Positions 48,483 to 49,278 of a DNA stretch of 64,000 bases are shown piece by piece. Location: assembly GCA_021789555.1 (NCBI GenBank), contig JAJYJK010000008.1:1-64000 (forward strand), given 5' to 3'. This stretch comes from Nitrospirota bacterium (GTDB lineage Bacteria > Nitrospirota > Thermodesulfovibrionia > Thermodesulfovibrionales > JdFR-88). Numbering within the stretch: position 1 is the first letter of the stretch; the number at the start of each line of letters is the position of its first letter. Under the pieces are notes generated by a model that was not told where the DNA came from, did no database searches, and worked only from the letters and a program-made list of their open reading frames with translations. The position numbers were made by a program, and so were the translations under genes.

Positions 48483-49278
48483 TGCCCGGAAAACGCCTGA
48501 AAACCCGTTTATAAACGCACTGGGGGCATTTCCCAGGGCCATCCGTGGCTCCCATAATCTGTTTTTTACGGAGGCGTATCCTCTCAGCCTCCCTTTCGAC
48601 GAGGCGATTAAATTTTTCCGCCAGAAAATCAACCTCTCATCCAAGGACTGGACGGAGATATGGGAGGCCATGCACACACGCGCCTTCACCGTCGCCGGCG
48701 CGATGAGGGACGATCTCCTGCATGACCTGCGTGACGCGATCGACAAGGCCCTGGCCCAGGGAACGACCATAGAGGATTTCCGCCAGTCATTTGACCAGAC
48801 CGTCCATAAATACGGCTGGGACTACAAGGGCGCCCGCGGCTGGCGCACCGGCGTCATATTCGATACCAACCTCCGCACCGCCTATGCCGCCGGCCACTAT
48901 CAGCAGATGACTCAGCCTGAGGTTTTGCGGGAGCGGCCCTATTGGCAGTATATAGGCGGCCTCTCAGAGCATCCCCGGCCGCTGCACCTCGAGTGGAGCG
49001 GCACGATATTGCGGGCGGACGATCCCTGGTGGAACACGCACTACCCGCCCAACGGCTGGGGCTGAAAATGCATTGTGGTGAGCGTCTCCGGTCCGGAGAT
49101 GTCGCGGGACGGGCTTAAAGTCAATAAAGCGCCTGATGACGGCACGTATGAATGGACGAACCCGCACACGGGGGAGATCATCGAGGTGCCTAAGGGCATA
49201 GACCCGGGGTGGGCGTATAACCCCGGGAAGGTGGCCGGGGGCCTCGTCTCTCCCGTACCGTTCGGAGGTGAAAAATAA
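48475..49278 (+). CDS. Mu gpF-like minor head/morphogenesis protein with in-frame UGA at 49063-49065 (candidate Sec)
   Basis: ORF 48475-49065 ends ...DDPWWNTHYPPNGWG*. The same frame continues KCIVVSVSGPEMSRDGLKVNKAPDDGTYEW...PGWAYNPGK to 49278, i.e. the expected C-terminus of the family (PPNGWG-C-x-C...YNPG). Confidence 0.85.
49083..49101 (+). promoter_or_regulatory. Candidate bacterial SECIS-like hairpin with GGUCC apical loop
   Basis: CGTCTCC-GGTCC-GGAGATG: 7-bp stem (one G-U pair); apical loop starts 24 nt after the UGA. Confidence 0.5.

What the first reader, a model, noticed from the sequence alone, without database searches (positions are those of the whole stretch)
49066..49103. SECIS-like hairpin correctly placed after the gpF UGA
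Downstream of the UGA, C83-C89 (CGUCUCC) pairs with G95-G101 (GGAGAUG), giving a 7-bp stem with one G-U pair and apical loop GGUCC. The loop begins 24 nt after the UGA. Bacterial SECIS elements typically carry G/GU in a small apical loop roughly 16-37 nt after UGA. The hairpin lies wholly in coding sequence, as expected for bacterial SECIS. Caveat: it is short, lacks an evident bulged U, and GC-rich palindromes are common here.
Basis: partly seen in the sequence, partly recalled or inferred. Interest (0 to 1): 0.88.

Follow-up and report, generated by a model that had tools for sequence, protein, structure and literature searches.

The report
Selenocysteine signal in phage head gene
A Mu-like prophage carries a UGA "stop" codon inside a head-protein gene, followed by an RNA hairpin that very probably tells the host to insert selenocysteine there; dozens of related phages do the same, which would make this a selenium-containing virus-particle protein of a sort not listed in the reviews I could search.

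Summary
The hairpin is real and, on comparative evidence, very probably a bacterial SECIS element. It lies 24 nt after an in-frame UGA (49063-49065) replacing an invariant Cys (NGWG-U-KC) of gpF, a MuF-type minor head protein, in an apparently complete Mu-like prophage. Alone it is only modestly unusual (synonymous-codon p about 0.01). Relatives settle it. Scans of viral contigs and genomes gave 33 distinct UGA-bearing gpF genes, window included: 22 UxC, 9 CxU, 2 UxU. UGA sits at either or both Cys codons; the UAA/UAG control patterns found no gpF. Published bSECIS criteria were met by 26 of 31 single-UGA forms but only 3 of 57 Cys forms (Fisher 3e-14; shared ancestry inflates this). One sub-group shows compensatory changes around a near-constant CGUGA loop, far above slid controls. 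Sequence after the UGA is under purifying selection. The host has selA, selB (in this window), tRNA-Sec(UCA), selD, and a formate dehydrogenase whose UGA is followed by a similar GGUC-loop hairpin. I found no phage selenoprotein in the open-access selenoproteome literature held. Decoding in vivo and the role of selenium are untested.

The parts
48475..49278 (+). gpF gene (Phage_Mu_F / MuF minor head protein), 267 residues when the UGA is read as Sec; ends in TAA 49276-49278
   Evidence: PF04233 2e-15; phrog_220 5e-89; sequence
49063..49065 (+). in-frame UGA at the first Cys codon of the NGWGCxC motif (residue 197 of the ATG-started protein)
   Evidence: Cys invariant in 56 aligned homologues
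49069..49071 (+). TGC codon of the second Cys of the motif, which is UGA in CxU and UxU relatives
49082..49102 (+). SECIS hairpin: stem 49082-49090 with 49094-49102 (core 49083-49089 with 49095-49101), apical loop GGUCC 49090-49094 (or GUC 49091-49093)
28636..30519 (-). host selB, selenocysteine-specific elongation factor, left of the prophage
   Evidence: TIGR00475 361 bits, over cut-off; SelB winged-helix domains
46830..48482 (+). Mu-type portal protein, the gene before gpF
   Evidence: PF06074 2e-109; phrog_113
45192..46673 (+). terminase large subunit
   Evidence: PF03237 and PF17289
49278..49832 (+). gpG-like virion morphogenesis / neck protein; its ATG overlaps the gpF stop (TAATG)
   Evidence: PF05069 1.7e-22; phrog_26; sequence
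51986..52924 (+). major head protein
   Evidence: phrog_1005 1.6e-77

Best explanation
The hairpin at 49082-49102 is a bacterial SECIS element. When the ribosome reaches the UGA in gpF mRNA, host SelB carrying GTP and Sec-tRNA(Sec) binds the hairpin's G/GU-containing apical loop and delivers selenocysteine, so that the full-length 267-residue head protein with a UxC motif is made instead of a 196-residue stub. The phage thus borrows the host's selenium machinery to build a head protein (SPP1 gp7, the studied MuF protein, binds the portal and is proposed to control DNA ejection). Shown here: the UGA, the hairpin, its association with UGA and its absence in Cys relatives, covariation in a sub-group, selection on downstream codons, and the host machinery genes. 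Inferred: decoding as Sec in vivo, SelB binding, presence in the virion, and what Sec does. For the chemistry I lean slightly toward a selenenylsulfide/diselenide redox pair or reactive selenolate at CxC, over a metal site formed with the invariant histidines H171 and H189.
For: UGA recurs at either or both Cys codons of one invariant CxC motif in 33 distinct gpF genes, while the same scans with UAA/UAG give no gpF. bSECIS rules met by 26/31 UGA forms against 3/57 Cys forms; stem energy and synonymous-shuffle z separate the groups, p 2e-11. Covariation: 78/78 cells paired, 3 of 6 pairs changed on both sides, 0/500 shuffles, all slides far lower. pN/pS 0.21 after the UGA against 0.16 before. 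The Cys/Sec state changes at least 9 times on the tree. Host selA, selB, tRNA-Sec(UCA), selD and a formate dehydrogenase UGA followed by a GGUC-loop hairpin. The nearest Cys relative with DNA (L429, 71% identity) has a broken, weaker stem, -4.8 against -12.0 kcal/mol.
Against: No expression or mass-spectrometry data. The window hairpin alone is significant only at about 1%. Covariation was shown in another sub-group and register; DNA of the window's closest probable UGA relatives (P0026, P0028, proteins ending exactly at PPNGWG) could not be fetched. 5 of 31 UGA forms miss a formal criterion, mostly the energy limit. Only 4 independent tree contrasts rest on well-supported branches, too few for significance by themselves.
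Confidence: 0.92

Rival explanations
1. The UGA is a plain nonsense mutation (or sequencing error) in a decaying prophage gene, and the hairpin is a chance GC-rich palindrome.
For: About 8% of TGA trinucleotides in the window are followed by a rule-satisfying hairpin.
Against: Recurrent UGA and never UAA/UAG at the same two codons in many phages; hairpins follow UGA, not Cys; purifying selection downstream of the UGA; the rest of the structural module in the window looks intact.
Confidence: 0.03
2. Programmed readthrough without selenium: UGA is a leaky stop giving a short and a long gpF, the long one carrying Trp or Cys from a near-cognate tRNA, with the hairpin slowing the ribosome.
For: A hairpin after a stop codon could serve readthrough; a 196-residue and a 267-residue product are both possible from the sequence.
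Against: UGA occurs exactly at Cys codons, including both in UxU, whereas readthrough sites need not replace Cys; loops and spacing fit the bSECIS rules; the host has the full Sec machinery and a formate dehydrogenase UGA with a similar loop.
Confidence: 0.04
3. Sec is inserted, but the functional SECIS is a longer or different structure around the same site, and the 7-9 bp hairpin is only its apical part.
For: RNAfold extends the stem by a 4-bp lower helix beyond a single bulged G; bacterial SECIS elements vary widely (PMC13188914).
Against: The short apical hairpin is the feature shared across UGA lineages, in several registers.
Confidence: 0.1
4. The prophage or its host reads UGA as an ordinary sense codon throughout (alternative genetic code).
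For: Phages with recoded stops exist (general knowledge).
Against: Of 21 other prophage genes checked here 7 or 8 end in TGA and none has an internal TGA (one gene end in that list was mis-set by a base); host-side genes also end in TGA.
Confidence: 0.01

Closest known systems
Bacterial SECIS of formate dehydrogenase genes (E. coli fdhF; the host's own formate dehydrogenase, G000:C99)
   Same: In-frame UGA at a Cys-equivalent codon, short hairpin inside the coding sequence just downstream, small apical loop with GGUC (host gene: UGA, 18 nt, then GUGGCC-GGUCU-GGCCAC, hairpin read by eye); same genome, hence same SelB.
   Different: Spacer 24 nt rather than 18 (from memory, 17-18 in E. coli fdhF); no bulged U; sits in a phage head gene, not an oxidoreductase.
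Selenoprotein families with interchangeable UxxC / CxxU / UxxU motifs (Trx-like 1 and Prx-like 2 in GOS, PMC2398784; the diselenide family of Shchedrina et al. 2007, cited there)
   Same: Sec can replace either or both cysteines of one motif.
   Different: Motif is CxC, protein is a phage structural protein with no thioredoxin fold assigned.
MuF / Phage_Mu_F proteins (phage Mu gpF, SPP1 gp7)
   Same: Same domain, same place next to portal and terminase, invariant CxC.
   Different: The first Cys codon is UGA with a hairpin; the ordinary members have Cys and no hairpin.

Membership tests
Bacterial SECIS element | Apical loop 3-9 nt and upper stem 4-16 bp | tested here: met
   Loop 5 (or 3) nt, stem 7 (or 9) bp; rules from PMC13188914
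Bacterial SECIS element | G in the first two loop positions, usually GG or GU | tested here: met
   Loop GGUCC / GUC
[quoted passage not shown]
   24 nt (25 to the triloop)
Bacterial SECIS element | MFE at or below -7.5 kcal/mol | tested here: met
   -12.0 kcal/mol
Bacterial SECIS element | Kept in UGA relatives and lost in Cys relatives | tested here: met
   26/31 against 3/57; covariation in a sub-group
Bacterial SECIS element | Bulged U in the 5' arm as in E. coli fdhF | tested here: not met
   A bulged G, not U, in the RNAfold structure. From memory this is an E. coli trait; it is not among the constraints of the general bSECIS model
Bacterial SECIS element | Bound by SelB and needed for Sec insertion | not testable with these tools
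   Needs a reporter or binding assay
Selenoprotein gene | UGA aligns with conserved Cys in homologues | tested here: met
   C197 invariant
Selenoprotein gene | Organism encodes SelA, SelB, SelD and tRNA-Sec | tested here: met
Selenoprotein gene | Sec present in the protein | not testable with these tools
   Needs mass spectrometry or 75Se labelling
MuF / Phage_Mu_F minor head protein | PF04233 domain beside portal and terminase genes | tested here: met

The most novel reading that the evidence does not exclude
A widespread set of tailed phages of selenium-using bacteria builds selenocysteine into a virion protein (gpF), with Sec free to sit at either or both cysteines of one motif (UxC, CxU, UxU) beside one hairpin, so that phage assembly or DNA ejection depends on host selenium supply and selenol chemistry.
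Probability: 0.75. Interest if true: 0.9.

Novelty: new variant of a known kind. Interest (0 to 1): 0.82.

Why it matters
Known bacterial selenoproteins are cellular proteins, mostly redox enzymes; the 2026 review of the prokaryotic selenoproteome that I searched does not mention phages. A virion selenoprotein would tie phage production to host selenium status, give a chemical handle (75Se, selenol-specific probes) on MuF proteins whose function is unknown, and offer a natural series in which like hairpins serve UGA codons 6 nt apart, which tests how strict the UGA-SECIS spacing is. Standard annotation cuts these genes at the UGA, so they are easily missed.

Tried and rejected
Rfam cmscan found no family in the window. 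UGA after NGW[K/R/Q/H] instead of NGWG gave no gpF. The genome-contig scan gave only two other UGA-gpF records among 12 hits. CxU pattern hits in 398 genomes of the phylum of the Desulfobacteraceae MAG were all unrelated to gpF. Named phages matched only below 60% identity and were not checked codon by codon (the query was assembled with its parts out of order and is of limited value). A gpF match with two TGA (L395) had its TGAs upstream of the likely start and keeps CxC. L371, a weak PF04233 match with one TGA, could not be shown to be gpF. Single-sequence AlphaFold failed (pLDDT 37). With an alignment the CxC region is confident (block means above 90) but coordinates could not be read and no solved fold matched, so metal site versus redox pair stays open. 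The TGA reported in host SelD was not located precisely, so its SECIS was not compared. tRNA scans of 30 UGA-bearing loci found no phage-borne tRNA-Sec; these are partial contigs.

Full report
What is there. The window holds an apparently complete structural module of a Mu-like prophage (terminase, Mu-type portal, gpF, gpG-like neck protein, major head protein, sheath, tape measure). gpF (48475-49278) matches PF04233 at 2e-15 and phrog_220 at 5e-89. It is interrupted by a single UGA at 49063-49065, which replaces the first cysteine of a motif (NGWGCxC) whose two cysteines are invariant among 56 aligned homologues.

How unusual it is alone. About 8% of TGA trinucleotides in this window have a rule-satisfying hairpin and 1.7% one this stable. 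About 1% of synonymous recodings do as well. That is suggestive only.

Relatives. A protein-based scan of viral contigs gave 80 relatives; all those recognised at the motif had Cys at this codon, and one (L035) had UGA at the second Cys. DNA pattern scans then found many gpF genes with UGA at the first Cys (UxC), others with UGA at the second (CxU), and two lineages with UGA at both (UxU: L414 = L416, and L415). Matching patterns with UAA/UAG gave no gpF. After collapsing near-copies there are 22 UxC (window included), 9 CxU, 2 UxU and 57 CxC sequences. On a protein tree built with the trait columns masked, the Cys/Sec state changes at least 9 times; well-supported branches alone force 4.

The hairpin follows the UGA. 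Best stem in the allowed place: mean stacking energy -13.8 (UxC), -13.1 (CxU) and -6.9 kcal/mol (Cys forms); mean z against synonymous shuffles -2.0, -1.9 and 0.0; Mann-Whitney 2e-11. Formal bSECIS rules: 26 of 31 against 3 of 57; the Cys rate of 5% is about the background rate. Of the two UxU forms one meets the rules and one (-7.0 kcal/mol) just misses the energy limit. UGA forms were collected by codon pattern, not by hairpin, so this is not circular. Shared ancestry inflates the p-values: on well-supported branches only 4 independent contrasts exist, with the hairpin going with UGA in 2.6 on average and never against, too few for significance. In the sub-group with loop CGUGA (13 distinct hairpins, one with CGGGA) all 78 cells pair, three of six pairs show changes on both sides, and no shuffle and no slid alignment approaches this. 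In UxC members of that sub-group the loop starts after 27 nt, in CxU after 21 nt, with the same hairpin.

The window's own neighbourhood. The nearest Cys relative with DNA at hand (L429, 71% identity, same phylum) has CUCCG-CGA-CGGAG at the same place: the core palindrome is partly kept by the peptide, but the stem is shorter (-4.8 against -12.0) and the loop has lost GU. Two predicted proteins at 84-85% identity (P0026, P0028) end exactly at PPNGWG, as the window's own truncated prediction does, while P0002 (81%) has Cys there. I take the first two for UGA forms, but their DNA could not be read.

The downstream part is translated. In eight pairs of UGA-bearing genes pN/pS is 0.21 after the UGA against 0.16 before it (some pairs share a sequence). 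UGA is otherwise a normal stop in this prophage.

The host can do it. The window's genome encodes selA, selB (inside this window at 28636-30519), tRNA-Sec with a UCA anticodon and selD. It has a formate dehydrogenase with UGA in the NCARVUHAP context followed after 18 nt by GUGGCC-GGUCU-GGCCAC (hairpin read by eye), with the same GGUC in the loop as gpF. The Desulfobacteraceae MAG with a UGA-gpF also has selA. A WOR-3 MAG with one does not, but its gpF sits on a 1.6-kb contig and resembles the Desulfobacteraceae one, so misbinning is likely (inference). Named SelB relatives suggest a Nitrospirota-like host, which is not established.

Function. MuF proteins are head components of unknown biochemical role; SPP1 gp7 binds the portal in a few copies and is proposed to control genome ejection (PMC5576092; PMC4493119). 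Invariant H171, H189, C197 and C199 would suit a metal site. The interchange of Sec between both cysteines recalls UxxC/CxxU/UxxU redox motifs (PMC2398784). I lean slightly to redox chemistry; this is inference.

Novelty. The 2026 and 2022 reviews of prokaryotic selenoproteins, the deep-Sep paper and the GOS paper do not mention phages, and targeted searches found no phage selenoprotein. The library is open-access only, so a report elsewhere cannot be excluded. The hairpin is a new member of the bSECIS kind; a phage head selenoprotein whose Sec can sit at either or both cysteines is a new variant.

Noticed in passing
window 28636-30519 (-) and prophage from about 31000 on: The Mu-like prophage lies right beside the host's selB, the factor its gpF would need; Mu-like phages insert almost at random, so this may be coincidence.
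   Followed up: no
L414/L416 and L415 (viral contigs): gpF genes in which both cysteines of the CxC motif are UGA (UxU), 6 nt apart, with one hairpin after them.
   Followed up: yes
window 49276-49280: gpF stop and gpG-like start overlap (TAATG), so termination at the UGA could also lower translation of the next gene through loss of coupling.
   Followed up: no
homologues P0005-P0024: Most close Cys homologues are about 400 residues long and carry a C-terminal PF18810 domain after the MuF part; the window's gpF and many UGA forms are short.
   Followed up: no
G000:C66:13161-14087 (host selD): Host SelD match contains one in-frame TGA, so SelD may itself be a selenoprotein; the exact codon was not located.
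   Followed up: partly
window 42271-44166: A pectate-lyase-like tail-spike protein gene lies upstream of the terminase.
   Followed up: no
L323 (1603-base contig, WOR-3 MAG): UGA-gpF in a MAG without selA; the tiny contig resembles a Desulfobacteraceae prophage and is probably misbinned.
   Followed up: partly
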